28,433 nucleotides of DNA, taken from a virus. The notes below the pieces were generated by a model. It worked only from the letters and a program-made list of their open reading frames with translations, searched no databases and was not told the origin of the DNA. Both the position numbers and the translations under genes were made by a program. Below, one piece after another: positions 4,555 to 20,492 of this stretch. Every line of letters begins with the position of its first letter. Position 1 is the stretch's first letter. Where the stretch lies: positions 1 through 28,433 of IMG/VR virus record IMGVR_UViG_3300025120_000395. One strand, 5' to 3'.

Positions 4555-4986
4555 ATGACATATGAAGTATCGGGTGTACCTCACTCAGACATACACAGAA
4601 TAATGCCACTGATAGATAAGTATTTAAATAATGTTATTCCGTATACAGGTGGCAGATACGAGAAACAAGATATAATAGAAGGAATAGAAAGTAAGCTATT
4701 TGATTTATGGATACCAATAAACACAACAACAACTGATGTTGATGGGGTGGTTATTACACATTTTACAGTGTATCCTAGAAAGAAAGTTTTCACTATTTTA
4801 TTGTGTTGTGGTGATCACTTAAACAAATGGTATCCTTTAATGTTTGATATGTTGTATAAGTTTGCAAATTTAAATCAATGTGACCTTGCTGAAGTAGTAG
4901 GAAGAAAAGGTTGGGTACGTAGATTAAAAGATGACGGTTTTAAACAAAGTGTTTGGATAGTAGAAAGAGAATTTAAAAATGGGTAG
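4555..4986 (+). CDS. GNAT-like / T7 gp13-like internal virion protein
   Basis: This 143-residue protein has the layout of the small acetyltransferase-like proteins placed just before the ejection-protein genes in T7-like and marine podoviruses: an N-terminal helix pair (HRIMPLIDKYL, then DIIEGIESKLFDLWIPI), a central beta pair (VVITHFTVYPRKKVFTILLCCGD), a helix (WYPLMFDMLYKFANLNQCD) and a closing strand containing GRKGWVRRLKDDGF. In GNAT folds the beta pair followed by CCGD and the helix would sit at the cofactor site, but the classical Q/RxxGxG/A loop is not seen, so acetyltransferase activity is doubtful. Its last 8 bases overlap the next gene. By position it resembles T7 gene 13, whose product is needed for virion assembly or infectivity. 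Fold assignment is inference from pattern memory. Confidence 0.6.
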   Translation: MTYEVSGVPHSDIHRIMPLIDKYLNNVIPYTGGRYEKQDIIEGIESKLFDLWIPINTTTTDVDGVVITHFTVYPRKKVFTILLCCGDHLNKWYPLMFDMLYKFANLNQCDLAEVVGRKGWVRRLKDDGFKQSVWIVEREFKNG

Positions 4987-7225
4987 TTCAAGATCAGCAC
5001 CAACAAGTACAGTCACAAGTCAGGTAAGGCAGGAATATCCTGATTTCTTTCAGCCTTATCTTGAAGATGTATTAGAAAGCTCACAGGAACAGTTTGCAAG
5101 AGAGTATGATCCTTTTCCTGAAGCAAGGTTAGTTGAAACACCACAAGCTAGAACAGATGCTTTAACCTCACTACAGGATACAGGTTTGGCAAGCATGAGT
5201 CAGCAAGGATATGCAGACGCTATTCAAGGAACTAAGTCTGCATCAACTGCTTTTCCAGAAACTGATCTATCTTCTTATATGAATCCTTATCAAGATCTTG
5301 TAACAGATCAGTTACTAAGGAACGCAAAAGAAAGAAGAGATATTAAACGTAAATCTATAGGAGATCAAGCTGCACGAGTAGGTGCGTTTGGTGGTAGCAG
5401 ACAAGCAGTAACTGAATCATTGTTTGATAGAGACACGCAAAGAGAACTCACTGATCTAGAAGAACGTAGTCAAATGGCTAACTTTGCTAATGCTCTAGCA
5501 GCATCTTCAGCAGATAAAGAAAGAGGACTGAAGGGATCACAGCAGTTAGCAGGATTAAGTCAAGCGCAACAAGCAGCTTTAACAAGTGGATTAGTGGGTG
5601 TCGAGAAGGCAGCAACAGCAGAGCAAGCTATTGATCAGCAAATCAGAGATGTAGCTTTTCAAGAGTTTATGGATCAGTCAAACTTTGATCAACAAAAACT
5701 CGCTGAGTACTCTGCTATCATTCGTGGTGCAACTCCACCTGCTAATCAATTTATTACTAAAGAAACAAGCACACCTAAAAGTGGTCTACAGCAAGCAGCA
5801 GGTTTAGGATCTATTGCTAGTGGTTTATTCGGTGGTGGTGGCGGAGGCGGTGGATTGTTTGGTGCATCGGGAGGAGTTGCTGGTTATAAACAAGGAGGAA
5901 CAACAGAGGATGTAGTTGATTCTGCTATTAAGAAGTTAGCAGGTATAGGAAGTGGTAATATAGAAATGGGATCAGGACAACGGGCATTAAAAAATGCTAT
6001 TGCTCCTAAAAAAGACGAAATCAAATTCATGGAAGAAGAGATAACAGTTGAAGGAGGTGGTCTACAAAATCTCATGCCGAATGATGGAGGTCAGTTTGAT
6101 ATGGCTACATTAGTTGAGCAAGGAAATGAAGACATGATGATGCCACAACAGCAACAGCTTGCATACGGTGGTGTTCCGGGACAACCATACACAGAAGACA
6201 TCGGTATGATGGGTGGACTTGCTTCAGTTGCTGGACCTCAGATGAGGTTTGCAGAGGGTGATAGAGTTGCTGATTCAAGAACTCTTATGGAAGATATGAG
6301 AAAAATACAAGAATTTAATAAGAAAAAAAATATACAAAGAAAAGCGGAACAAGTTGAACAGGCAAAGAAGTTTAGTAAAGAATTTAGTGAAACAGGTAAA
6401 AAGTTTGATAAGGCAGTTATAAACACAGCAGGAGATATGGTGTCTGGAGAATTTATAGGTATTCCAACACTTTCAAAATATCTTACAGGAAGTGATTTTA
6501 ATTTAGGTAAAAAAATTGTTAGTGGTTACGAGACACAAGATGAACGAGAAAAAAGAATAAGGGAAAATAGACCAAAAGAAATAGAAACAGAAGTAGAAGA
6601 TGTAACAGTTAATGATTCTGGTTTTGGAGATGATGTAAATCAAACTGTTTTTGGTGAGATGGAAATGGAGACTCAACCACAAGCACCTCAAAAGAAACCA
6701 GAAGTAAAAACACCTCTACCGACAAAGAAAAAACCAGTTGGAGAATCAGAATTAGCTAAATACTTAAAGACATTAGATAGAGATCAAGGACTGTCTAGTA
6801 GAGATAAAGTTGCAATGGGTCTTGCTTTGTTAACAGGTAGAGAAGAAGGTTTGACACAAGCATCACGAGCAGTTGCTGCTGGTACAGATCCAGCATCTGA
6901 TCTTAAAGTAGAGTTAGATGCTATAAAAGCATCAAACGAAACAGAAGCTAACAAAGCTAAACTTGCTGAAGCATTACGTAAACGTGCTGCTGATATAGCT
7001 AAAAAAACTTTTGAGGCAAAAAAGAGTGGTCTTGAGATAGTAAAACTTCAACAACGAATACAAGAAGCAGATGATCAAGCAGCTATAAAACTATGGGAAT
7101 CTGCTGGCATAATAGGTCAAAATAATTTATTAAAGATAACAAAAGAAGAGAGAAAAACTATGACTCCTGAGTTATATGCTCAAAAAATAAGGCAAGCAGT
7201 AGCTAGTTTAAAACCAAGAAGATAA
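4979..7225 (+). CDS. Internal virion-like protein with glycine run and coiled-coil C-terminus (748 aa)
   Basis: The family is not one I can name with certainty; position between the gp13-like protein and the giant ejection protein suggests an internal core or ejection component. Residues 1-270 are helical and rich in Gln, Ala and Asp (SSQEQFAREYDPFPEARL; DRDTQRELTDLEERSQMANFANALAASS). A run of Gly around 284-291 marks a hinge, followed by three short aromatic-GG or EGD patches (GYKQGG, LAYGGVPGQP, MRFAEGDRV). Residues 420-560 are highly charged and 650-745 form a long Lys/Glu/Ala-rich helix likely to be coiled coil. It starts inside the previous gene (overlap 4979-4986), which favours translational coupling. 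No enzyme motif is visible. Confidence 0.65.
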   Translation: MGSSRSAPTSTVTSQVRQEYPDFFQPYLEDVLESSQEQFAREYDPFPEARLVETPQARTDALTSLQDTGLASMSQQGYADAIQGTKSASTAFPETDLSSYMNPYQDLVTDQLLRNAKERRDIKRKSIGDQAARVGAFGGSRQAVTESLFDRDTQRELTDLEERSQMANFANALAASSADKERGLKGSQQLAGLSQAQQAALTSGLVGVEKAATAEQAIDQQIRDVAFQEFMDQSNFDQQKLAEYSAIIRGATPPANQFITKETSTPKSGLQQAAGLGSIASGLFGGGGGGGGLFGASGGVAGYKQGGTTEDVVDSAIKKLAGIGSGNIEMGSGQRALKNAIAPKKDEIKFMEEEITVEGGGLQNLMPNDGGQFDMATLVEQGNEDMMMPQQQQLAYGGVPGQPYTEDIGMMGGLASVAGPQMRFAEGDRVADSRTLMEDMRKIQEFNKKKNIQRKAEQVEQAKKFSKEFSETGKKFDKAVINTAGDMVSGEFIGIPTLSKYLTGSDFNLGKKIVSGYETQDEREKRIRENRPKEIETEVEDVTVNDSGFGDDVNQTVFGEMEMETQPQAPQKKPEVKTPLPTKKKPVGESELAKYLKTLDRDQGLSSRDKVAMGLALLTGREEGLTQASRAVAAGTDPASDLKVELDAIKASNETEANKAKLAEALRKRAADIAKKTFEAKKSGLEIVKLQQRIQEADDQAAIKLWESAGIIGQNNLLKITKEERKTMTPELYAQKIRQAVASLKPRR

Positions 7226-7239
7226 AAGAGTAAAACAGT

Positions 7240-10200
7240 ATGGCTCTTCCTCCACAGCAGCAACCACAACAACAGGTAGAATCTTTTGATGATCTTGTAC
7301 CTGACAGTGGTCCTCAAAACTTTGATGAACTCATAGCACTTCAGCAACAAGAGTTAGCTGCTCCTGATGATATCGATAGACAGATAAATGAACAGGTTGC
7401 TTATCTAGATAATCTTTTATATGGAGCACAGCAACGAAGAGAAGAAGCTCCAATCAAAACTCCAGAGCCAGTTCCTGATCGTGGTTTGTTTATGGAAGCA
7501 CTTGCAGGTATAGGATCAGGTGCTTTAGGTACACTTGGTTCAGGGTTATCAGGTATAGAAAGAATAGCAGAACGGCTCGAAATTGATCCAACTGGAGATG
7601 ATGCAGGTTGGTTTAGACAAGCTGGTGAAGCTATGAAAAAAGGTGCTGAAGAAATAAAGGCATCTCCTGATAAAGAAATTTATTTTAAAACATTTAATGC
7701 TTTTGGTTCTATATTAGGATTTGCTGCTCCTGCTGTAGTAGCTGCGCCTTTTAGTGGTATTGCTGCGTTAGGAATAGGAGCAACACTTGCTGCTGGAACT
7801 GGTGCAGATGAAGCCTATGATAGAGCTATAGAAGGAAAGGCAACTGAAGAACAGATAGATCAGTCTGTTGGTCTTGGTACTGCATTAGGTTTAACAGAGA
7901 TACTTGCACCAATTAAGATTATAAAAAGTCTTGGAAAGGTTATGCCTGACTGGGACTTTACAAGAAAGTTTATTAATAAAGATGGTCTTAATACAACATC
8001 TACTGAAGAGTTAATTAATAAGACAACTAAAGAAGCACAGTCTGGTAGATTAAATAAAATACTTAGTGTTAACGATACAGGTATAAAAGAGTTTGCAAAA
8101 CGTGTTGGCAGTACGGTAGGTCTTGAGGGGTCACAAGAGTTTCTTGCAGCAGTTGGTCAGAACGCTATTGAAAGATACATATATAAACCTGATGCAGACT
8201 TGTTAAATGCAGATGCTATCGAAGAAGGTCTGTATGGTGGTGGTGCTGGTGGTATGTTGCAAGGAATTGTTTCTACGTTTTCCATGCGTAAGTCTAGACA
8301 GTATCGAAAAAAGATGGAGAAGTTTTTAGAGTCAGACGAGTACGGTCAAATAAGAACAGAAGCAGAACAAGCATCAGATCAAATTGAAGAAGCAGATGCA
8401 CGTATAAAAGAACTACAAGAAAAAGATGAGGTATTCTTTCCATCAGCTAAGAGCACAAAAAAACAAATAGAGAATGCTGTTAGAGATAGAGAGAAAGCAG
8501 GAATCAGATTACAAAGAGCAAATGCATTAGCAGAGAAAGCTCTTAATGATAAGGTCTATACGTCTAATGAAGTTCTAAGTTATTTATCTGGTCAAGTAGA
8601 TGAGGATGGTAGATCTCTTTACTCACCAGAATATTTAAAGTCATTGCAAAAGTCTGATAGAGAGAAGGGAACTTCTTATCTTAAAGCTGTGTATAGTGGA
8701 CACGTACAAGACACTAGAACAAAACACGAGCAAGAATCAGAAGAGAAGTTCTTAAATACAATTAACACAACAGCTACTATTGAAAACGGAATACCTGTAT
8801 ATAATACAATTGATGAAGTAGAACAGGTAAAAGAAGGACGAACTCCTAAACAGTTTGAAGTAGAAGTAGATGCCAGAATAGAAGACAGCATTAAACATCC
8901 TGATAATATTGAGGTACAGGATGAAAAACTTATTTTAAGAAAGGGAGGTTTAAGTGTTCAGTCTGTTAATAACTTATTTGATAATTTTTCTATAGAAGAT
9001 AGTAATAATAAATATTTAAATAGTATTAAGTATATACTTCTTGCTGATAAAAAAAACATAAAGCAAGTAACTGAGATAATAAACTCAGATAAAAAAATAG
9101 GTCTAAAGAAAAACAATATAAACAACTTAGCTAAGAAGATAAGAAAAGACGCAGATGCAGTTATAGAAGCAAAGAAGGTAGCAGACCAGAAAAAAACTCA
9201 AGCTGAGAAACAAGAAGATATTATTGCAGAAACAAAATCTAAAGAAGAACAAGATAGATTAGCAAAAGAAAGTGATAACTATTTAACAGAACAAAACAAA
9301 AGTCTTGAAGGAAATGAAGAACTTGGTGATGTTCAAACAGAAGAAGGTGTTGATTCAAACACAGCACAACAAGAGATAACAGATGTTCAAAACACTGAAG
9401 CAAGTGATATAGAGAAGAATGCAGAAATATTTAGTGATGATGTAAGTAGAGAAGAACTTGCTGTAGAAACAAAACCTATAGAAGAAGAAATAAGTACAGC
9501 AGTAACACTAATAGATATACCAGATAAGAATGTAATAGAAGCTAAAGATCAAGACAATATTAAAGATGATATTGAAGGTAGGTTATTTAGTGTTATAGAA
9601 GAAAGTTATACAGATATTGATGGAGCATATGGTGAGGTATCTGCCGAATTAGTAGACTATGGATTTGATGCATCTGATATTGTTGCCGATATAAAACAAT
9701 TTGGATCTGGATATACAACCTCTCTTGATGAAAGTTTAAAGTCAATACCTGAGAATAGAAATGATTTACGAAAAGCAGCAAGTGCGTTAACTAATAGAAT
9801 AAAGAAAAGAATTAGAGATGATAAGATAGAGAATAAAGATTTAGATGTTATTAGAGATGCTTCTAATGCTGAGATAGCAGAGACTTATCTTTTTAGTATA
9901 AGTGAAAAAGAATCTATAGAAAGTATAGAGAATGAAGTTGATCCTATTCTTTCTGAAATGGGTCCAGTTAAGTATAGAGAGTTAGCAAACGCAGTAGCAA
10001 CAATGCTAGGCGTAGCTGGCTCATCTAAAATTGTTGATAGAGTTTTAACAAAAGGTTCAAACGGTGGTCGTGAATATATTTATAAATTTAAAAATCTTAA
10101 CGACAAAGATATATCTGTTGTGTTTAAAAATATACCTAATCAAACAGAAGGCAATGTAAAAGGTGGTTTATTTAATCTTAAAGATGGAACAATAACCATT

Positions 10201-13200
10201 GATCCAAATGTTTTAACATGGTCTGACGCACTAGGAGTAACAGCACATGAATCCTTCCATGCTGCTAAAAGACTTTTGTTTAAAAACACAGAAGTAGATA
10301 GCGTGTTTGAAACTGTTTTAAGTCGTGACATGGCTAGAAAAAATGGATGGAAACAAAATAAGTATGAAGAATTTTTTGATAAAGTATATAAGAAAGAAGA
10401 AGGAGCTACTAAAGAAGTAGAAGACGCAAGGCTAGAAAAAATAGGAAAACTTCTAAACGAAGAAGCACAAGCATACCTATATGAGCAATGGTACAAAGGA
10501 GAAAACATAGTTGGATTAACTCCTCCTGCTCGTAATTTGTTCAGTATTATGAGAGACTTTTTTAGACAGTTTAATAACTATATAAGAAGACAAGTTCTTA
10601 ATCAGGACGTAGAAGTAAAAGAAGATTTAAATAAAGTTGTGTTAGGTCAGATGAGAGATATGGCTAGTGGTGAGTTAGCTAGAAGAGCAGGAGCATTACC
10701 TCCAGCCAATGCAGCAAACTTAGCTGCTGAACACATACCAGAAAATACCGAATCTATTTTAAAAGCAACATGGGCAGAGATTACTCGTGGTGCTGTTCCT
10801 GTAGGTAAAGATAAAAACGGTAATGATATTATGAGAGACATTACTGTGTTAGGTAGAATCTTTAGCCACTTGTCTGCTGTGTCAGAAAGAAGTGAATCAT
10901 TTAAAAAGTTTTATAATAAACTTCAAGATCGTATTGCATTACGTAACTCTATAAAACAAACAGCAGAAATATTTTTAGAAAAGATAGGACCATATTCAGG
11001 TATCTTTAGATTAAGTAATTCTGATTTTGTTGAAGTACAAAAAATAAGTTTATTTGCAGATGAAGCAAACCAAGATCCTGTGTTTGAGAATGAAGGAACT
11101 GAACAAGCAACAGCTACTGTTACAATTACTGAATCAACTTTAGATATGATAACTAAAAGATATCAAACACTTTCTAATTTTTATAGTGATCTAGGAATAA
11201 AAGAAGGAGACGTTACATCCTTTCAAGATGGTGATGTTATAAAGTATCAAATGAGACTTGAAGATCCTAGACTAGCTAATGCTTATGCAGGTTCTCATAC
11301 AGCAATTAAACATGTAGGTGAAAATGTTTATGCTGGATTAATACATAACTTTCTAAACCAACCTGCTTTAAAAGAAACTAGTATAAAGATAAGAACAAAA
11401 GGAGTAGACGGTTCTGGTAAGAATGCTTATCGAACAGCGATTAATGATTTTAAAGAATTAAAAAAAGAATTAAAGGCTAATGGTTTATTAGATTCAGAAG
11501 GTAAACTAGACTCAGCAGCATATGAAAACTATCAGAAAGAAATGAGTGAGCAAGGAGTTCCTGCTGAAGATCGTGTTTTTGGTGGTCTTTCTTTTGGAGA
11601 TAAAGGAGGTCTTAATATAGGAGCAGATAAAGTATGGACAGTTCTCGAAGCTATTACTGCTGATAAAAGAAGTGGATACTTTCCTCACTATAGATATGGA
11701 TCTCACGTTGCTGCTGTGTACGACATATCTGGTAACTTAGTAAGAATGGAATCTGCTGAATCAGCAATGGCTGAACGACTAGGCAATGTACCTGTAATAG
11801 GAGATAGGGCAAGACAAGGTGTTCTTAGGAAACAAGATGAGTTAGTTAAAGAATTACAAACACAGTTTGGTCCTAACTATACAGTCGAGCCTTTACAGTT
11901 AACAATAGAAGCAGCAAGAATTGGTAACGATAGATCAAAGAAAACTATTATAGATGCGTTGGGTAAGTTAAATGTTTTGTCTGAAGCATATACCAGAAGA
12001 TCAACAGACCAAGAAAAAATACAAAGAGTAAATACATTTGTTGATATGATTAAAGCAGAAGCTATAGGAAGCAGAGTAGACTCTTTAGTTAGAGATAGGA
12101 AAAATGTTCCCGGTTATATTAGTAAAAGAAATAATGATGGCAGATACTACAAGCAAGCAATACAAAGATACGTAGATGAAGGATCTAACACTGCGTCTTC
12201 TTTGTTTGAAGAACCAGAATTACTAGAAGCAAAAGAAGAAATAGCACAGTCTGTTCAAGGTGGAATAGACTCAAATCTTTATAGACTTGCAGATAAGACT
12301 TTTGATTATGTAAACAATCCAAACAACGAAGCAACTTTTATACGAAGCTATGCATTCCATGCGTATCTAGGATTTAACTTTTCTTCTGCTGTTGTTAACT
12401 TAACTCAAACAGTACAAGCAACTTATCCTATTCTTTCTTCTATTACAGGAATGACTAAAGGAACAACAGGTCTTATTAAAGCTTCCGCAGATGCAGTAAA
12501 ACTGTCTAAACATATGACCTTTGCAGAAAAAGGAGATGCTCCTAGATTAGGTAAGTATGGTTTTGAGTTTTTTACAACAGAGGTTGTAGATGGAGAACCA
12601 ACAGTTGTTGTTGATCCAAAACGAAAACCATCTTGGATGGCAGATGATGAGTTTCAAATGTTAGCTAAGTTATTTCAAAAAGGAACTATACAACCAATTC
12701 AAAATATGGATCTAGGTGCAGGCATACTATCACAAAGTTTAGATAAACCAGTCGCACGTACACTAGCTGACTCATCTGGTTTTGCATTTGGATATGTAGA
12801 GAACTTAAACAGAATAACAGCAGCTTTATCTTTCTATCGTGCTGCTAAAAAAGATGCACAAAATAATAATAGAGATAAGTTTAATGCGTTTGCTTCAAGC
12901 ACTCGTTTCTCTGAGCCTCTTGTAGATGATAGTGGTAACAGTATAGAGACTGATACTGAAGAAGGTATAAATGCTTTTGCTGAACGCATGGCAGAGATGG
13001 GTGTAGAGAAGACACAGTTTTTTATGGGAAAAGAAAATAGACCAACTCTATTTCGTGGTCCTGTTATGAGTGCAGTAACACAGTTTCAAAGTTTCTTATT
13101 TCAAATGGTTGGTACATATGCAACAGCATTTAGAACATCAGTTGGTGCTAAGTTAGATCAGTATCCACCAGAAGAAGCAAAGCTCCTTGCAAGTATGGCA

Positions 13201-14133
13201 CGTAAGCAACTTGGTATGATGACCATGACAATGATGGCATTTGGTGGTGCTATGGGTCTTCCGTTTATGGAGAACTTTAAAGAACTATTTAAGTTTATAA
13301 CAGAAAACTTTGGAGATGAGGTTGGTGAAGATCTTGAAGCTGGTACACGAGAAGTTCTTGGTCCTATATTAGGATACAATGCAACTGATATGTTACTAAG
13401 AGGATTGCCAAGAAGTCTTGGAATAGATATATCAAGACGAACTGGGTATGGTGATGTTATTCCTCTGAGGCTTTTGATGGGTGGAGATCCTGTAGACTTT
13501 GCTGGTCCCGGTATAGCTAGATTAGTAGATCAAGCTCAAGGTATTAACAACGCTATGGAAAGAAGTACTGGCGTGTTAAGTACTGTAGGTAACTTAGCTC
13601 ACGCACTTGCACCAATTGGTTTTGGTAATGCTATAGAAGGTTTTATATCAGAGCCAACTAGAGGAACACTGACACGAAGAGGACAGCAGTTGTTACCAGC
13701 AGGAACTTTAAGCAATAGTCAGAGAGTAGCAAGAGCTTTAGGATTTACACCTACTCAAGTTTCTAGAGCACGAGAAAGAAAAGGAATGGAGAACTACTAT
13801 CAGTATCGTTCTAAAAATGGTAAAGAAAGATACACAAATAGAATGGCTGTTTCTTTAAGTAATTATATAAAATCTATGCAAGAAGGTGACTTTGATACAG
13901 CGATGGATAACTATCAAGAGTATTTAAAAGATTACTTACATGTTATGAACCATGATTTAGATAACATGTCTACTCCTTCAAAGCAATATAATATTAATCC
14001 TAGTACAGTTGAGAAACGTGCAATGAGAGCACAAGATCCTATGGGTGTTCAAACATCCTCAAGAGTTAGAAAGTCTGTACGTCCTGAGATACAACGATTA
14101 ATACAAGAAGGTGTCATTCCTTCTGACGAGTAA
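7240..14133 (+). CDS. Giant internal virion / large polyvalent protein with embedded HExxH metallopeptidase
   Basis: At 2297 residues this is by far the largest gene. Residues 1-80 are Gln/Pro/Asp-rich with FDDLVP and FDELIA short repeats. A Gly/Ala-rich hydrophobic segment at 153-187 and another near 210-228 could insert in membranes. Residues about 350-920 are charged and largely coiled-coil or disordered. A zinc-peptidase signature HESFH occupies 1003-1007, with NEEAQAYL at 1073-1080 giving a plausible third ligand (E1074 or E1075), as in gluzincins. The C-terminal part from about 1930 (RPTLFRGPV at 1934, then QFQSFLFQM) resembles the LPD38-type domain of large polyvalent proteins. Such proteins are packaged and injected with phage DNA; here its place after the core-protein genes supports an ejection role. 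The ATG follows the previous stop by 14 bases with a weak AAAGAG site. Peptidase activity is unproven. Confidence 0.75.
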   Translation: MALPPQQQPQQQVESFDDLVPDSGPQNFDELIALQQQELAAPDDIDRQINEQVAYLDNLLYGAQQRREEAPIKTPEPVPDRGLFMEALAGIGSGALGTLGSGLSGIERIAERLEIDPTGDDAGWFRQAGEAMKKGAEEIKASPDKEIYFKTFNAFGSILGFAAPAVVAAPFSGIAALGIGATLAAGTGADEAYDRAIEGKATEEQIDQSVGLGTALGLTEILAPIKIIKSLGKVMPDWDFTRKFINKDGLNTTSTEELINKTTKEAQSGRLNKILSVNDTGIKEFAKRVGSTVGLEGSQEFLAAVGQNAIERYIYKPDADLLNADAIEEGLYGGGAGGMLQGIVSTFSMRKSRQYRKKMEKFLESDEYGQIRTEAEQASDQIEEADARIKELQEKDEVFFPSAKSTKKQIENAVRDREKAGIRLQRANALAEKALNDKVYTSNEVLSYLSGQVDEDGRSLYSPEYLKSLQKSDREKGTSYLKAVYSGHVQDTRTKHEQESEEKFLNTINTTATIENGIPVYNTIDEVEQVKEGRTPKQFEVEVDARIEDSIKHPDNIEVQDEKLILRKGGLSVQSVNNLFDNFSIEDSNNKYLNSIKYILLADKKNIKQVTEIINSDKKIGLKKNNINNLAKKIRKDADAVIEAKKVADQKKTQAEKQEDIIAETKSKEEQDRLAKESDNYLTEQNKSLEGNEELGDVQTEEGVDSNTAQQEITDVQNTEASDIEKNAEIFSDDVSREELAVETKPIEEEISTAVTLIDIPDKNVIEAKDQDNIKDDIEGRLFSVIEESYTDIDGAYGEVSAELVDYGFDASDIVADIKQFGSGYTTSLDESLKSIPENRNDLRKAASALTNRIKKRIRDDKIENKDLDVIRDASNAEIAETYLFSISEKESIESIENEVDPILSEMGPVKYRELANAVATMLGVAGSSKIVDRVLTKGSNGGREYIYKFKNLNDKDISVVFKNIPNQTEGNVKGGLFNLKDGTITIDPNVLTWSDALGVTAHESFHAAKRLLFKNTEVDSVFETVLSRDMARKNGWKQNKYEEFFDKVYKKEEGATKEVEDARLEKIGKLLNEEAQAYLYEQWYKGENIVGLTPPARNLFSIMRDFFRQFNNYIRRQVLNQDVEVKEDLNKVVLGQMRDMASGELARRAGALPPANAANLAAEHIPENTESILKATWAEITRGAVPVGKDKNGNDIMRDITVLGRIFSHLSAVSERSESFKKFYNKLQDRIALRNSIKQTAEIFLEKIGPYSGIFRLSNSDFVEVQKISLFADEANQDPVFENEGTEQATATVTITESTLDMITKRYQTLSNFYSDLGIKEGDVTSFQDGDVIKYQMRLEDPRLANAYAGSHTAIKHVGENVYAGLIHNFLNQPALKETSIKIRTKGVDGSGKNAYRTAINDFKELKKELKANGLLDSEGKLDSAAYENYQKEMSEQGVPAEDRVFGGLSFGDKGGLNIGADKVWTVLEAITADKRSGYFPHYRYGSHVAAVYDISGNLVRMESAESAMAERLGNVPVIGDRARQGVLRKQDELVKELQTQFGPNYTVEPLQLTIEAARIGNDRSKKTIIDALGKLNVLSEAYTRRSTDQEKIQRVNTFVDMIKAEAIGSRVDSLVRDRKNVPGYISKRNNDGRYYKQAIQRYVDEGSNTASSLFEEPELLEAKEEIAQSVQGGIDSNLYRLADKTFDYVNNPNNEATFIRSYAFHAYLGFNFSSAVVNLTQTVQATYPILSSITGMTKGTTGLIKASADAVKLSKHMTFAEKGDAPRLGKYGFEFFTTEVVDGEPTVVVDPKRKPSWMADDEFQMLAKLFQKGTIQPIQNMDLGAGILSQSLDKPVARTLADSSGFAFGYVENLNRITAALSFYRAAKKDAQNNNRDKFNAFASSTRFSEPLVDDSGNSIETDTEEGINAFAERMAEMGVEKTQFFMGKENRPTLFRGPVMSAVTQFQSFLFQMVGTYATAFRTSVGAKLDQYPPEEAKLLASMARKQLGMMTMTMMAFGGAMGLPFMENFKELFKFITENFGDEVGEDLEAGTREVLGPILGYNATDMLLRGLPRSLGIDISRRTGYGDVIPLRLLMGGDPVDFAGPGIARLVDQAQGINNAMERSTGVLSTVGNLAHALAPIGFGNAIEGFISEPTRGTLTRRGQQLLPAGTLSNSQRVARALGFTPTQVSRARERKGMENYYQYRSKNGKERYTNRMAVSLSNYIKSMQEGDFDTAMDNYQEYLKDYLHVMNHDLDNMSTPSKQYNINPSTVEKRAMRAQDPMGVQTSSRVRKSVRPEIQRLIQEGVIPSDE

Positions 14134-14171: not shown

Positions 14172-14969
14172 ATGAAACAACCAATCAATGTATATATCGG
14201 ATACGACTCTCGTGAGCCTGAAGCATACGAGGTCTGTAGCCATTCGTTACTGAAGTTTAACAATGAAGACTTCAGTGTAAACACAATTCCTTTGAAGCAT
14301 CAAGAGCTAAGAGACTGTGGTCTATTTGAAAGACGATGGGTTATAGATGAGGAAGGACAGTATTGGGACGAGCTAGACGGTAAGCCTTTCTCAACAGAGT
14401 TTTCCCATAGTAGATTTGCAATACAGGAATACGCAAAGACAATACAAAAGCAGTCAGGATGGACAATGTTTGTTGACTGTGATTTTTTATTTCGTAGACC
14501 TGTTAAAAATCTTTTTGATTTAATTGATGACAAGTATGCTGTGATGTGTGTCAAGTTTGATTGGCAACCACGTAGCACTGTTAAGATGGACAATAAAATA
14601 CAAACATCTTATCCGAAGAAACTATGGTCATCTCTTATGCTGTGGAACCTAGACCATCCAGCAAATAAAAAGATGGGATACATAAAATTAAATAACGCAT
14701 ACGGCATAGACTTCCATACATTCACATGGTTAGAAGATGATAATCTTATAGGAACTATTCCTGATGAATGGAACTATGTACCCGGTGTCTCACTGTCTAA
14801 TAAAGATCCACATGCTGTCCACTTCTCAGAGGGTGGCCCGTGGTTCAAAGGATATGAGTCAGTAGAATTTGCATACGAGTGGCGTGATGAAAACGTAAAG
14901 TCAATGTATGATAAATGGGACATGATTAGAAATGCTACATGCATGAGAAAAACAATAGCAGGAAAATAG
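14172..14969 (+). CDS. GT-A type glycosyltransferase (GT8-like)
   Basis: The 265-residue protein opens with NVYIGYDSREPEAYEVC, a nucleotide-sugar-binding start seen in a common family of marine phage and cyanobacterial glycosyltransferases, and carries FVDCDFLF, whose D102-x-D104 is the metal and sugar-nucleotide DXD motif of GT-A folds. A second conserved zone (HAVHFSEGGPWFKGY, about 220-235) resembles the His-containing metal-binding end of GT8 enzymes. No membrane segment or signal peptide is seen, so it should act in the cytoplasm on a soluble acceptor such as a virion protein, a lipid-linked sugar or DNA. No Shine-Dalgarno site precedes the ATG; the promoter described at 14137 places the start of the transcript on it. 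The next gene, another sugar enzyme, begins one base after its stop. Acceptor and sugar are unknown. Confidence 0.8.
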   Translation: MKQPINVYIGYDSREPEAYEVCSHSLLKFNNEDFSVNTIPLKHQELRDCGLFERRWVIDEEGQYWDELDGKPFSTEFSHSRFAIQEYAKTIQKQSGWTMFVDCDFLFRRPVKNLFDLIDDKYAVMCVKFDWQPRSTVKMDNKIQTSYPKKLWSSLMLWNLDHPANKKMGYIKLNNAYGIDFHTFTWLEDDNLIGTIPDEWNYVPGVSLSNKDPHAVHFSEGGPWFKGYESVEFAYEWRDENVKSMYDKWDMIRNATCMRKTIAGK

Positions 14970-14970
14970 A

Positions 14971-17370
14971 ATGAGTATCGTAACTGAAAATCCTATAAAC
15001 GTTGTAACAAGTTTCCCAGTTAAAGCATGGGATCTTTATGCTAAAGAGTTCCTAACTTCTTTTGATAAGAAGTGGAATAAAAATATACACCTAGCTGTGT
15101 ACTATGACGGTGGTGATCTACCAGAAGATAAAGTAGAGAGTGATCGTATCTCCTATTTTAAATTAGAGAAAGATAAAGAATGGGCTGAGTTCCAAGATAC
15201 ATATGGTGAGAACAATGGTAGACCAGACGGTTATGATGAACTAGATGAATGGCCTCCTAAGAACTTTGTTCAGAGTGACACATACAATTACAGAATGGAT
15301 GCTGCAAGGTTCTCTCATAAAGTTTTTGCTATGACAGGTGAAGCTCAAAGGTTAATGCACAAGGCTCATAGTGATACAGCTAAAGCTGGTATAAACCCTC
15401 TTCATGCAAGCATAGGACATATGGTTTGGATTGATTCTGATTCAATAACTAAACAAGACCTAGCATATGAAAAGGCAGAAGAAATAATATGTCAGGGAAA
15501 TAATATTACGATGACTGACATAAGTCATTTAGGTCGTACTGCAATTGACTATAGCTGTACATCTTTTATTTCTTTTTACTTAACAAGCCCCCGTGTTCAA
15601 GAGTTTATAAATGATTTCAGAGGGATCTATGTAAGTGGTGAAGTATTTGGATACAGAGAGTGGACTGATGCTTTTGTATTTACTCGTTTACTTACAATGT
15701 ATGCCGTTCACGGTCTAGAGATTTGTAATCTATCTGAAGGATGTAAAGATCTAAATGCTTTTGAGTACTCTCCTATCGGTAAATACATGGTACATAATAA
15801 AGGTAATCAAAAAATTACAGGTGAACTACCGCCAGATGTAGAAGGACCGCAACGTAACTCAATGATACCTCAGATTGTTACTCACTATAAGTTTAATAAT
15901 CTTCTTGAGATAGGTACATGGAGTGGTGCAAGAGCTATCAAGATGGCTACTGCTTTGTTTCAATCAGGTATTGATAAGGTTCACTATAGTGGTTTTGATT
16001 TATTTGAAACAGCTACGCCTGAAGATGATGAGGTAGAAAAAAATGTTAAGAAGCATTACAGTGAGGAGGAAGTCAAAGGTTATCTAAATAATTTCTCAAA
16101 GGCTGTGGCTAAAGATGGTAAAGAATTTACCTACGCTATATTCAAAGGTAATACTCGTGACACCTTAAAGATATTAAAGAATAAAGATTACTGTAATACT
16201 CATAACATTAAGCCACAGTTTGCATACATTGATGGCGGTCATAGTGTTGAAACAATCAGATCAGATTACGAAGCACTCAAGCATCTGCCTGTTGTTTTGT
16301 TTGATGATTTCTACACGCCAGACCCAGCTACTCAAGAAGGTCCAGACGTTACCAAGTATGGATGTAATGAAGTCTTTGATAAAGACATAGATAAGAAATT
16401 CACAAAAGCTGTGTTGTCTACAAGTGATAGAGTTATGGGTGGTGGTATAACAAACTTAGCTATTGTTGTAAGTGATGACAGTCTAGGACTACCTCCAAAG
16501 ATTACTCCCAACCGTGTTCCTATTAAAGTAAGTCCTCAAGACTGTATGCCTAAAGAACATATAAAAAATAATATTGAAACGAACACACCAAAGATGGATC
16601 GTTGGATAAACGAGCGTGGTCTGATTAACTCAGAGGATATAGTTGTTGCATCTGCTGGTCCTTCTCTAGTTAAGTATCTTGATGAGATAAAAGAACGGCA
16701 GAAGAAAGGTGCGAAGGTTATATGTGTTAAGCATTCTCTTCCAACTTTAATTAAGAATGGAATCATACCACACGGTTGTGTGATATTAGATCCTAGATCT
16801 ATTGAAGGCGAATCGACTCACGGTGTTTTACGTAAAAGTTTATTTGAGAATATACCTAAAGAAACAATTATGTTTGTAGCAAGTATGACAGACACGACTG
16901 TATTAGATTACGTCTTAACTAAAACAGATAACATCGTAGGGTTCCATGCATTCTCTAACGCTGTATCTAAGTATGAGTTTCTAAACGGTAAGTATTTAAT
17001 AACAGGTGGGACATGTGCTGCAACTAGAGCAGTAGGTATCTTTCATACACTTGGATTTAGAAACTTTGATCTGTATGGTTTTGATTCGTGTCTAACAGAA
17101 AAGCCAAAAAACTATAAAGATAAAAGAGAAGACGGTGCTCCGTTGTTTATGAATGTCGGTGTAGAGAATGGAGATCCAGATGAAGAAAAGTTCTGGACTA
17201 CAGGCGAACTACTGGCACTGGCTCAAGATGTAGAAGCTATGTTAGATAGTGATGTACTTGATCTTAACATTGATATACACTGTGAAGGACTTGTTAATGC
17301 GGTCTGGAAGGATCGTCTACGAAAAGGATATAAGAGAAGACATTACAATGAGATAATAAAAGGAGATTAA
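14971..17370 (+). CDS. Three-domain fusion: glycosyltransferase, SAM methyltransferase, DUF115/MptE-like
   Basis: Three modules can be read in 799 residues. About 1-275 is a GT-A-like domain with HMVWIDSDS (D155-x-D157 as DXD). About 295-505 is a class I methyltransferase of the Methyltransf_24 type: SAM-binding LEIGTWSGA (312-320), an acidic GFDLFE after strand 2 (341-346), and FAYIDGGHS with the following DYEAL helix (418-436), then VVLFDDF. About 545-775 is a DUF115 (6-hydroxymethylpterin pyrophosphokinase MptE-like) domain with VASAGPSL (559-566), VICVKHSLP and ITGGTCAATRA with FDLYGFDSC; that family also includes the Maf flagellin-glycosylation proteins. The start has AGGA 7 bases upstream. 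Adjacent to a separate glycosyltransferase and under the same promoter, it likely builds and methylates a glycan. The substrate is unknown; domain limits are estimates. Confidence 0.8.
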   Translation: MSIVTENPINVVTSFPVKAWDLYAKEFLTSFDKKWNKNIHLAVYYDGGDLPEDKVESDRISYFKLEKDKEWAEFQDTYGENNGRPDGYDELDEWPPKNFVQSDTYNYRMDAARFSHKVFAMTGEAQRLMHKAHSDTAKAGINPLHASIGHMVWIDSDSITKQDLAYEKAEEIICQGNNITMTDISHLGRTAIDYSCTSFISFYLTSPRVQEFINDFRGIYVSGEVFGYREWTDAFVFTRLLTMYAVHGLEICNLSEGCKDLNAFEYSPIGKYMVHNKGNQKITGELPPDVEGPQRNSMIPQIVTHYKFNNLLEIGTWSGARAIKMATALFQSGIDKVHYSGFDLFETATPEDDEVEKNVKKHYSEEEVKGYLNNFSKAVAKDGKEFTYAIFKGNTRDTLKILKNKDYCNTHNIKPQFAYIDGGHSVETIRSDYEALKHLPVVLFDDFYTPDPATQEGPDVTKYGCNEVFDKDIDKKFTKAVLSTSDRVMGGGITNLAIVVSDDSLGLPPKITPNRVPIKVSPQDCMPKEHIKNNIETNTPKMDRWINERGLINSEDIVVASAGPSLVKYLDEIKERQKKGAKVICVKHSLPTLIKNGIIPHGCVILDPRSIEGESTHGVLRKSLFENIPKETIMFVASMTDTTVLDYVLTKTDNIVGFHAFSNAVSKYEFLNGKYLITGGTCAATRAVGIFHTLGFRNFDLYGFDSCLTEKPKNYKDKREDGAPLFMNVGVENGDPDEEKFWTTGELLALAQDVEAMLDSDVLDLNIDIHCEGLVNAVWKDRLRKGYKRRHYNEIIKGD

Positions 17371-18806: not shown

Positions 18807-20492
18807 TCAAGACCCACATGTTCCTCCGTGTCCTGATAGGTCGCATATGTCATGTGTTTCAACTGACTCCTCAAACTCTTCTCCAAGTTTGTCTTTGGCT
18901 TCGTTGTAGCTGACCTTAGTTAAAGGCTGACCACCACGACTACCATTAGGATAAACAGTGAACCCACGCAGATTGCCAGAATATCTGGCGAGTGTTTCAG
19001 CGAATGAGTCAACCATGTCTTCATTGTTTAATTTACTCCCCCATTCAGGTAAGTTAATTGTACTTGATATAGACATGTCCACGTAGCTTTGAACGTCTGC
19101 TTGAAACTTAATTCTCCTTTCATAATCTTCTGCTAGATCTAAAGCAGATTCAATACTATCTGGATCTGTTCCATACGTTTCTATTATTTCTTTTGCAGCA
19201 GCATCAACAACATATTGATAGTGCCATCTGTTCCCATTCTTTAGATACCTTCTCTTGTAAGCTACAGCAAAGATAGGTTCAATGCCTGTACTTGTACCAG
19301 CTAAGATACCAATAGAACCAGTGGGAGCAATGGCTCTGTTTGCTACTGGTCTACTCAGTGATAGTTCATCTGAAAACTCTTTAGATACTTTATCACTCAC
19401 TCCTTTGTAAACACTTAACCATGCATGTAGTTGAGGTGTTACTTCATAACGATCTCCTTGTTTAAGTAACCACTCATGTACACCCATGATACCCAGTCCA
19501 AGTCTCCTGTTCTTTTGTCTTACGTCATATACTTTTTCATAAGGAAGCTTGGCTTTCAACGTACCACATATTAAAAACTTTGTGGCTAACTTAATGACAT
19601 CATGTAGTTCAGTAATGGAATCGATACGGGCAAAGTTAATGCTACCCAAATTACAAACGTCACTGTCATCGGAACTTGTAACTTCGGTACAAGCATTTCT
19701 GAGTGTCTCTTGTTCCTTTTCAAAGAAGTTAAACGAGAAACCCGGCTCTCCATTTCTAAGAGCCTGACGTACATTAGTCCTAAATACATCTCCAATATCT
19801 CCAGTTTCGTAGTAGTTAAGTAACCACTCAGTGTCATAATTAATACTTATGTTTGTCATGTCTAGTGGTGCAGGAAAATTAAAGTCATCTGTTTTTATGT
19901 CAGCAAGTGTCTGTCCTGTCTTACCGACTGGCATCTCATCCCAGTTCTTGCACGTAAGAAAATCTTGTACATCAGAATGCTTCCAGTTTAATGAAGCATA
20001 GATAGCTGATCTTCTGCTACCGCCTTGCATCACTCGTCTGCCTATTTCGTTAATCATCTGCATCTTAGGTATAGGGCCAGACGCTGTACCACCTGTTCCT
20101 TTTAACGTAGCACCTGCACCACGATATACAGAATAGTCAATACCGATACCACCACCTGTCATAAGACATGACTCTGTTTTCCAAGACAAATTAGCCCAGT
20201 CTTCTCTGGTGTCTTCCTCTGCTCTCAATAAAAAACAATTGTTAAAAAACTTATTACTTCTCCCAGCATAATAAAGATAACGTCCACCGGGAATGAACTT
20301 TAAATCAGTTATCATGTTGGTAAGTTCTTTTACTTCATCAGATGATAGGTGGTCTCCACAGACATCCTCTGCAAGTGTGTGTGCTAGATCCTGCCAAGTC
20401 TCACAACCATCATGCATATACTTATGTTTAAAGATTGTTTCACTGAACTCAGATCTGAACATAGGGTTTTCGTTGCTACGCCATGTAGACAT
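18807..20492 (-). CDS. nrdJ: Adenosylcobalamin-dependent (class II) ribonucleotide reductase
   Basis: This 561-residue enzyme converts ribonucleotides to deoxyribonucleotides for phage DNA synthesis. Motifs in order: FIPGGRYLYYAGR (66-78), NNC (84-86) with the first redox cysteine, GGGIGIDYS (113-121), GGSRRSA (157-163), the active-site NACTE (266-270: thiyl-forming C268 and E270), C280 in the SDVCNLGSIN segment as disulfide partner, PTGSIGILAGTSTGIEP, and a C-terminal cysteine pair C550/C559 for reduction by thioredoxin-like donors. No ATP-cone is present and no small radical-subunit (nrdB) gene neighbours it, which supports class II, using host- or environment-derived B12. It is compact, as usual for phage enzymes. 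AAAGGAGAG lies just before the ATG. The class call is by motif memory; a class I alpha subunit is less likely. Confidence 0.85.
   Translation of the reverse strand: MSTWRSNENPMFRSEFSETIFKHKYMHDGCETWQDLAHTLAEDVCGDHLSSDEVKELTNMITDLKFIPGGRYLYYAGRSNKFFNNCFLLRAEEDTREDWANLSWKTESCLMTGGGIGIDYSVYRGAGATLKGTGGTASGPIPKMQMINEIGRRVMQGGSRRSAIYASLNWKHSDVQDFLTCKNWDEMPVGKTGQTLADIKTDDFNFPAPLDMTNISINYDTEWLLNYYETGDIGDVFRTNVRQALRNGEPGFSFNFFEKEQETLRNACTEVTSSDDSDVCNLGSINFARIDSITELHDVIKLATKFLICGTLKAKLPYEKVYDVRQKNRRLGLGIMGVHEWLLKQGDRYEVTPQLHAWLSVYKGVSDKVSKEFSDELSLSRPVANRAIAPTGSIGILAGTSTGIEPIFAVAYKRRYLKNGNRWHYQYVVDAAAKEIIETYGTDPDSIESALDLAEDYERRIKFQADVQSYVDMSISSTINLPEWGSKLNNEDMVDSFAETLARYSGNLRGFTVYPNGSRGGQPLTKVSYNEAKDKLGEEFEESVETHDICDLSGHGGTCGS

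What the first reader, a model, noticed from the sequence alone, without database searches (positions are those of the whole stretch)
10240..10484. HExxH metallopeptidase signature buried in a 2297-aa ejection protein
HESFH (residues 1003-1007) with an appropriately placed NEEAQAYL is a gluzincin-type site in the middle of a giant protein with membrane-active Gly/Ala segments and an LPD38-like C-terminus. An injected protease could process virion proteins or cleave host defence proteins on entry.
Basis: partly seen in the sequence, partly recalled or inferred. Interest (0 to 1): 0.6.

Follow-up and report, generated by a model that had tools for sequence, protein, structure and literature searches.

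The report
Metallopeptidase domain in phage ejection protein
A very large, probably virion-packaged phage protein carries a conserved zinc-protease-like domain in its middle, a known theme in phages; the one unusual point is that two distant relatives keep the domain but have lost one of its metal-binding histidines.

Summary
HESFH lies at residues 1003-1007 (10246-10260) of the 2297-aa ORF 7240-14133, with NEEAQAYL at 1073-1080. It is not chance: about 0.011 HExxH motifs are expected in this protein. H1003, E1004, H1007 and E1075 are invariant in seven colinear family members (window included), and the active-site segment is under purifying selection beside a fast-evolving linker. E1075, the second Glu of NEEAQAYL, is the third-ligand candidate.

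A low-confidence model puts these residues on two better-predicted helices behind strands; its best structural neighbours are zincins (lethal factor, PprI/IrrE, ArdC, jannalysin), all at Z below 8. A homologue's model did not reproduce this.

The C-terminus is the PLxRFG 'tail-700' module (NF032893), not LPD38. The upstream gene resembles a DNA ejection protein, and phage H66's relative is annotated as found in virions. This matches the 'polyvalent proteins' of Iyer et al. 2017: a new member of a known kind, in a subfamily Pfam does not detect.

Unexpected: two divergent homologues have Glu for the first His (EExxH), so peptidase activity is probably not universal. Substrate and timing are unknown; cis-processing is my best guess.

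The parts
7240..14133 (+). 2297-aa giant protein (PLxRFG-type polyvalent / ejection protein)
   Evidence: ORF; colinear homologues L001, L004, L012, L013, L019, L020; NF032893 match
7486..7809 (+). Gly/Ala-rich, possibly membrane-active N-terminal segments (residues ~83-190)
   Evidence: Read from the sequence; 62-76% identical to L004 over residues 101-200; membrane activity is inference
9157..9939 (+). Divergent linker before the domain (residues ~640-900); possible cut region
   Evidence: 8-34% identity to L004 and L001 in 50-residue blocks; the equivalent linker in L012/L013/L019 has dN/dS 0.58-0.79; cutting here is inference
9952..10569 (+). Zincin-like metallopeptidase domain (residues ~905-1110)
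   Evidence: Alignment A8; model m31dbc87614b8; structural neighbours
10246..10260 (+). HESFH, residues 1003-1007
   Evidence: conserved HExxH in seven family members, EExxH in L023 and L024
10456..10479 (+). NEEAQAYL, residues 1073-1080; E1075 (10462-10464) is the third-ligand candidate
   Evidence: E1075 invariant in all nine aligned family proteins and in A8; E1074 varies
12037..13839 (+). PLxRFG 'tail-700' C-terminal module (residues ~1600-2200)
   Evidence: phrog_11358 residues 1600-2200, E 8e-28; NF032893 E 6e-50; 60-77% identical in L003, L004, L001
4979..7225 (+). Upstream gene, weakly similar to a DNA ejection protein family
   Evidence: phrog_4287, E 1.4e-5

Best explanation
The region is a gluzincin-like metallopeptidase domain inside a giant PLxRFG-type polyvalent protein that is packaged in the virion and ejected with the DNA. 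H1003 and H1007 on one helix and E1075 on the next would hold a metal ion, and E1004 would activate water. Most likely it acts in cis, around packaging or ejection: it cuts the long polypeptide, perhaps in the divergent linker before it, and separates the N-terminal membrane-active part from the C-terminal module. Shown here: the motif, its conservation and purifying selection, and the gene context. Supported but weak: the predicted zincin layout. Inferred: metal binding, proteolysis, the cis substrate and the timing.
For: HExxH plus E1075 invariant in seven colinear family members and among 17 of 180 invariant positions. Active-site segment dN/dS 0.07-0.10 against 0.58-0.79 in the linker, L012/L013 against L019. 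Window model has helix, strands, HExxH helix, Glu helix, and its top structural neighbours are zincins. PLxRFG module; H66 relative annotated as verified in the virion; neighbouring gene resembles a DNA ejection protein. Other phage proteins with this C-terminal module also carry HExxH or HExxxH motifs upstream of it. PMC5512222 describes zincin MPTases as the commonest polyvalent domain, proposes processing, and reports that P1 DdrB is processed before packaging.
Against: No sequence-profile match for the domain itself. Structural Z at most 6.2, and the model of homologue L012 did not give zincin neighbours. L023 and L024 have EExxH. The N4 vRNAP, which also has an HExxH domain, is packaged uncut (PMC5512222). 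No cut site is known.
Confidence: 0.5

Rival explanations
1. The domain is an active metallopeptidase effector: after ejection it cleaves one or more host proteins, such as defence or regulatory proteins, rather than its own chain.
For: Ejected giant proteins are proposed to carry effectors, including peptidases (PMC5512222). The site is intact in the window and its closer relatives.
Against: No substrate is known, and no host-directed evidence was found here.
Confidence: 0.22
2. The domain keeps a zincin fold but its main role is not proteolysis: it is structural, regulatory, or binds a metal for another chemistry. The EExxH relatives are members that have gone furthest this way.
For: EExxH in L023 and L024 with the rest of the site kept. 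N4 vRNAP is packaged uncut although it has a conserved HExxH domain (PMC5512222; PMC12633501), and its C-terminal domain, of which the HExxH-bearing C1 is part, is reported to autoinhibit the polymerase. An HExxH domain of an alpha-ketoglutarate oxygenase is also among the weak structural neighbours (8s5f, Z 3.6).
Against: Full HExxH...E set kept in all seven closer family members, under purifying selection, which suggests catalysis in them.
Confidence: 0.25
3. The HESFH motif is a chance match without functional meaning.
For: No Pfam or PDB sequence match to the region.
Against: 0.011 motifs expected; ligand set conserved across homologues; purifying selection.
Confidence: 0.02

Closest known systems
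Zincin-like MPTase domains of phage polyvalent proteins (Iyer et al. 2017, PMC5512222)
   Same: HExxH helix and a second helix with a Glu, in the middle of a giant, probably injected phage protein; variable insert between the two helices
   Different: Not detected by Pfam MPTase-PolyVal (PF18818); which of the paper's 12 clades it belongs to was not tested
PLxRFG 'tail-700' proteins (NCBIfam NF032893), e.g. Pseudomonas phage H66 gp60 and other F116-like phages
   Same: Homologous C-terminal module; H66 gp60 also has HExxH motifs upstream of it
   Different: H66 gp60 is 3787 aa and carries LPD23, LPD3 and methyltransferase-like domains; its HExxH regions were not matched by the window family's profile
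Phage N4 virion RNA polymerase C1 domain (PMC5512222, PMC12633501)
   Same: Giant ejected phage protein with a conserved HExxH domain next to a large C-terminal part
   Different: The N4 protein is an RNA polymerase; no polymerase domain was found in the window protein; homology of the two HExxH domains was not tested
IrrE/PprI, ArdC, and minigluzincins jannalysin and selecase (solved structures)
   Same: Zincin layout, found as structural neighbours of the window model
   Different: No sequence match; weak Z (3.2-5.0); the window has 68 residues from H1007 to E1075, and homologue L012 has 45

Membership tests
Polyvalent-protein zincin-like MPTase (PMC5512222) | HExxH on one helix and a conserved Glu on the following helix | tested here: met
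   Conserved in seven family members; both on predicted helices
Polyvalent-protein zincin-like MPTase (PMC5512222) | Core fold: N-terminal helix, three-stranded sheet, two C-terminal helices | tested here: inconclusive
   Window model shows the elements in order, but strands have low pLDDT and neighbours have Z below 8; the L012 model lacks a clear sheet
Polyvalent-protein zincin-like MPTase (PMC5512222) | Lies in a large multidomain phage protein delivered to the host | tested here: inconclusive
   Size, PLxRFG module and ejection-protein neighbour fit; delivery is inferred from H66's virion annotation
Polyvalent-protein zincin-like MPTase (PMC5512222) | Metal binding and peptide-bond cleavage | not testable with these tools
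   Needs biochemistry; ligand distances in the model were not measured
Pfam MPTase-PolyVal (PF18818) | Match to the family profile | tested here: not met
   No match at E 10 in the window, six homologue records or H66
PLxRFG 'tail-700' (NF032893) | Profile score over the curated cut-off of 100 bits | tested here: met
   170.4 bits, E 5.9e-50
LPD38 (PF18857) | Match to the family profile in the C-terminus | tested here: not met
   No hit by hmmscan of the protein, its C-terminal relatives or H66 gp60; the genome search also found none but had no positive control

The most novel reading that the evidence does not exclude
Within one family of ejected giant proteins, a metallopeptidase site has changed into an EExxH...E site (L023, L024) that keeps the base, one His and the third ligand: a natural shift to a non-proteolytic or different metal-binding role inside a virion protein, alongside relatives with the intact site.
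Probability: 0.25. Interest if true: 0.45.

Novelty: new member of a known kind. Interest (0 to 1): 0.3.

Why it matters
Zincin domains are reported as the most common domain of polyvalent proteins (PMC5512222), yet their roles are mostly predicted. This family offers a natural comparison: relatives with the intact site, two with EExxH, a conserved C-terminal module, and a fast-evolving linker as a possible cut site. It would let one ask whether such domains process their own protein, act on the host, or are structural.

Tried and rejected
Pfam, PHROGs, NCBIfam and PDB sequence searches found nothing for the peptidase region itself. A weak Tox-MPTase4 match in L001 (E 0.03, 14.7 bits against a cut-off of 25) was not used. 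The LPD38 reading was rejected. HTVC115P gp40, from the named phage with the closest primase/helicase and with a giant gene at the end of its structural genes, is not detectably related by hhalign or by the domain profile. A genome-contig scan with the C-terminus confirmed no relative. The second model, of homologue L012, gave no clear zincin match. Chance was rejected. A family missing from the structural lists is not taken as absent.

Full report
What is there. The ORF 7240-14133 (+) encodes 2297 residues. HESFH lies at residues 1003-1007 (10246-10260) and NEEAQAYL at 1073-1080 (10456-10479). It is the only HExxH in the protein; composition predicts 0.011.

Relatives. Scans of viral contigs with the domain and with the conserved C-terminus found colinear homologues: L001/L005, L004, L012, L013, L019 and L020, plus the more divergent L023 and L024; L003 and L008 hold only the C-terminal part. 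With the window, seven colinear proteins have HESFH, HEAYH, HEAFH, HEGFH or HETWH at the aligned place, and NEEAQAY, TEEAQAW, LEEAQAQ or LDEAQAH downstream. H1003, E1004, H1007 and E1075 are among 17 positions of 180 (residues 951-1130) invariant in six of them. E1074 is Asp in L020 and Met or Leu in L023 and L024, so E1075 is the better third-ligand candidate. Between L012 or L013 and L019, dN/dS is 0.07-0.10 in the active-site segment, 0.07-0.08 in the C-terminus and 0.58-0.79 in the linker; the closer pair L012/L013 gives 0.39, 0.14 and 0.64. Synonymous distances in the L019 pairs are near saturation, so those ratios are rough.

Exception. L023 and L024 carry GEEVYH and GEEAFH: Glu replaces the first His, while the residues matching E1004, H1007 and E1075 are kept. 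A profile built only from the HExxH members finds both at the same place (E 3e-12 and 5e-18 with Z set to 50; the best shuffled control shown had E 0.23). The two come from different metagenome records and are about 46% identical in the C-terminus, so a sequencing error is unlikely. Other giant proteins, L015, L030 and L031, hold a more distantly related HE[AS]FH domain.

Fold. The window model (12-sequence alignment, mean pLDDT 56) has a helix, several strands, the HExxH helix (model residues 114-133) and the Glu helix (178-205). Ten-residue blocks over model residues 121-220 average 61-87, and the strand region mostly lies below 60. VIA-align neighbours are led by anthrax lethal factor (Z up to 6.2 over the whole list; the rows aligned to its catalytic end reach 5.9), then PprI/IrrE (4.2-5.0), ArdC (4.8), and selecase and jannalysin (3.2-3.6). 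All are below the Z of 8 that the tool gives as a caution, and Foldseek alone had no E under 0.001 in the PDB or viral library. The model of homologue L012 (pLDDT 64) has confident helices at the site but poor strands, and gave mostly unrelated helical neighbours. I treat the fold as likely, not shown. Distances between the ligands were not measured.

Context. The C-terminus matches NF032893, PLxRFG 'tail-700', and phrog_11358; LPD38 is not found. Named phage relatives of the C-terminus include F116-like Pseudomonas phages such as H66, and Rhizobium, Agrobacterium, Sinorhizobium, Vibrio, Shewanella and Pseudoalteromonas phages. H66 gp60 is annotated as verified in the virion by mass spectrometry and carries LPD23 and LPD3. 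These relatives show HELQH and HEMVH (H66), HEATH (RHph_TM3_14A), HELITH (douglas 12A4) or HELGGH (Y7), while PBC5 gp21 and Atu_ph08 gp21 show none; the domain profile from the window family did not score these above shuffled controls in the part of the output read, so shared ancestry of those motifs is not claimed. The window gene 4979-7225 weakly matches a DNA ejection protein family. The primase/helicase is closest to Pelagibacter phage HTVC115P at 51%, so a marine podovirus-like phage is likely; the host is not established.

Mechanism. Polyvalent proteins are described as injected multidomain proteins, with zincin-like MPTases as their most common domain; processing of the polypeptide is proposed, P1 DdrB is processed before packaging, and N4 vRNAP is packaged uncut (PMC5512222). 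The N4 C1 domain also has an HExxH motif (PMC12633501). Given the conserved intact site, the central position and the fast-evolving linker before it, cis-processing is my first choice (0.5), a non-proteolytic role second (0.25), and a host-directed effector third (0.22). None of these was tested here.

Verdict. The finding is a new member of a known kind, in a subfamily Pfam does not detect. The EExxH relatives are the most interesting part.

Noticed in passing
L023 protein residues 494-498 (EEVYH); L024 protein residues 1536-1540 (EEAFH): Two divergent homologues keep the domain but have Glu in place of the first zinc-binding His; the base Glu, second His and third-ligand Glu are kept.
   Followed up: partly
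window 4555-4986 (+): 143-aa ORF without a family match; similar-sized genes annotated as N-acyltransferase (RHph_TM3_14A) and toxin-activating lysine-acyltransferase (HTVC115P gp46) sit among the structural genes of other phages, upstream of a giant gene. Homology was not tested.
   Followed up: no
window 14172-17370 (+): Two genes directly after the giant ORF: 265 aa (phrog_28018, unknown function) and 799 aa with MptE-like and Methyltransf_24 domains. The 799-aa protein has no match in the named phages but is kept next to the giant gene in L001, L003 and L004.
   Followed up: partly
window 18807-20492 (-): 561-aa ribonucleotide reductase large subunit with a class II (B12-dependent) insertion-domain match, where HTVC115P has separate alpha and beta subunits.
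   Followed up: no
L015 2375-14989 (+): A 4205-aa open frame in another viral contig carries a distantly related HEAFH...EE domain; Pfam finds no family in it.
   Followed up: partly
window 10140-10508 (-): A 122-aa antisense ORF covers the HExxH site; probably a by-product of the coding strand, not tested.
   Followed up: no
L012 9028-9177 against window 10246-10464: The distance from the second His to the third-ligand Glu is 68 residues in the window and 45 in L012, L013; an insert of variable length sits between the two helices.
   Followed up: partly
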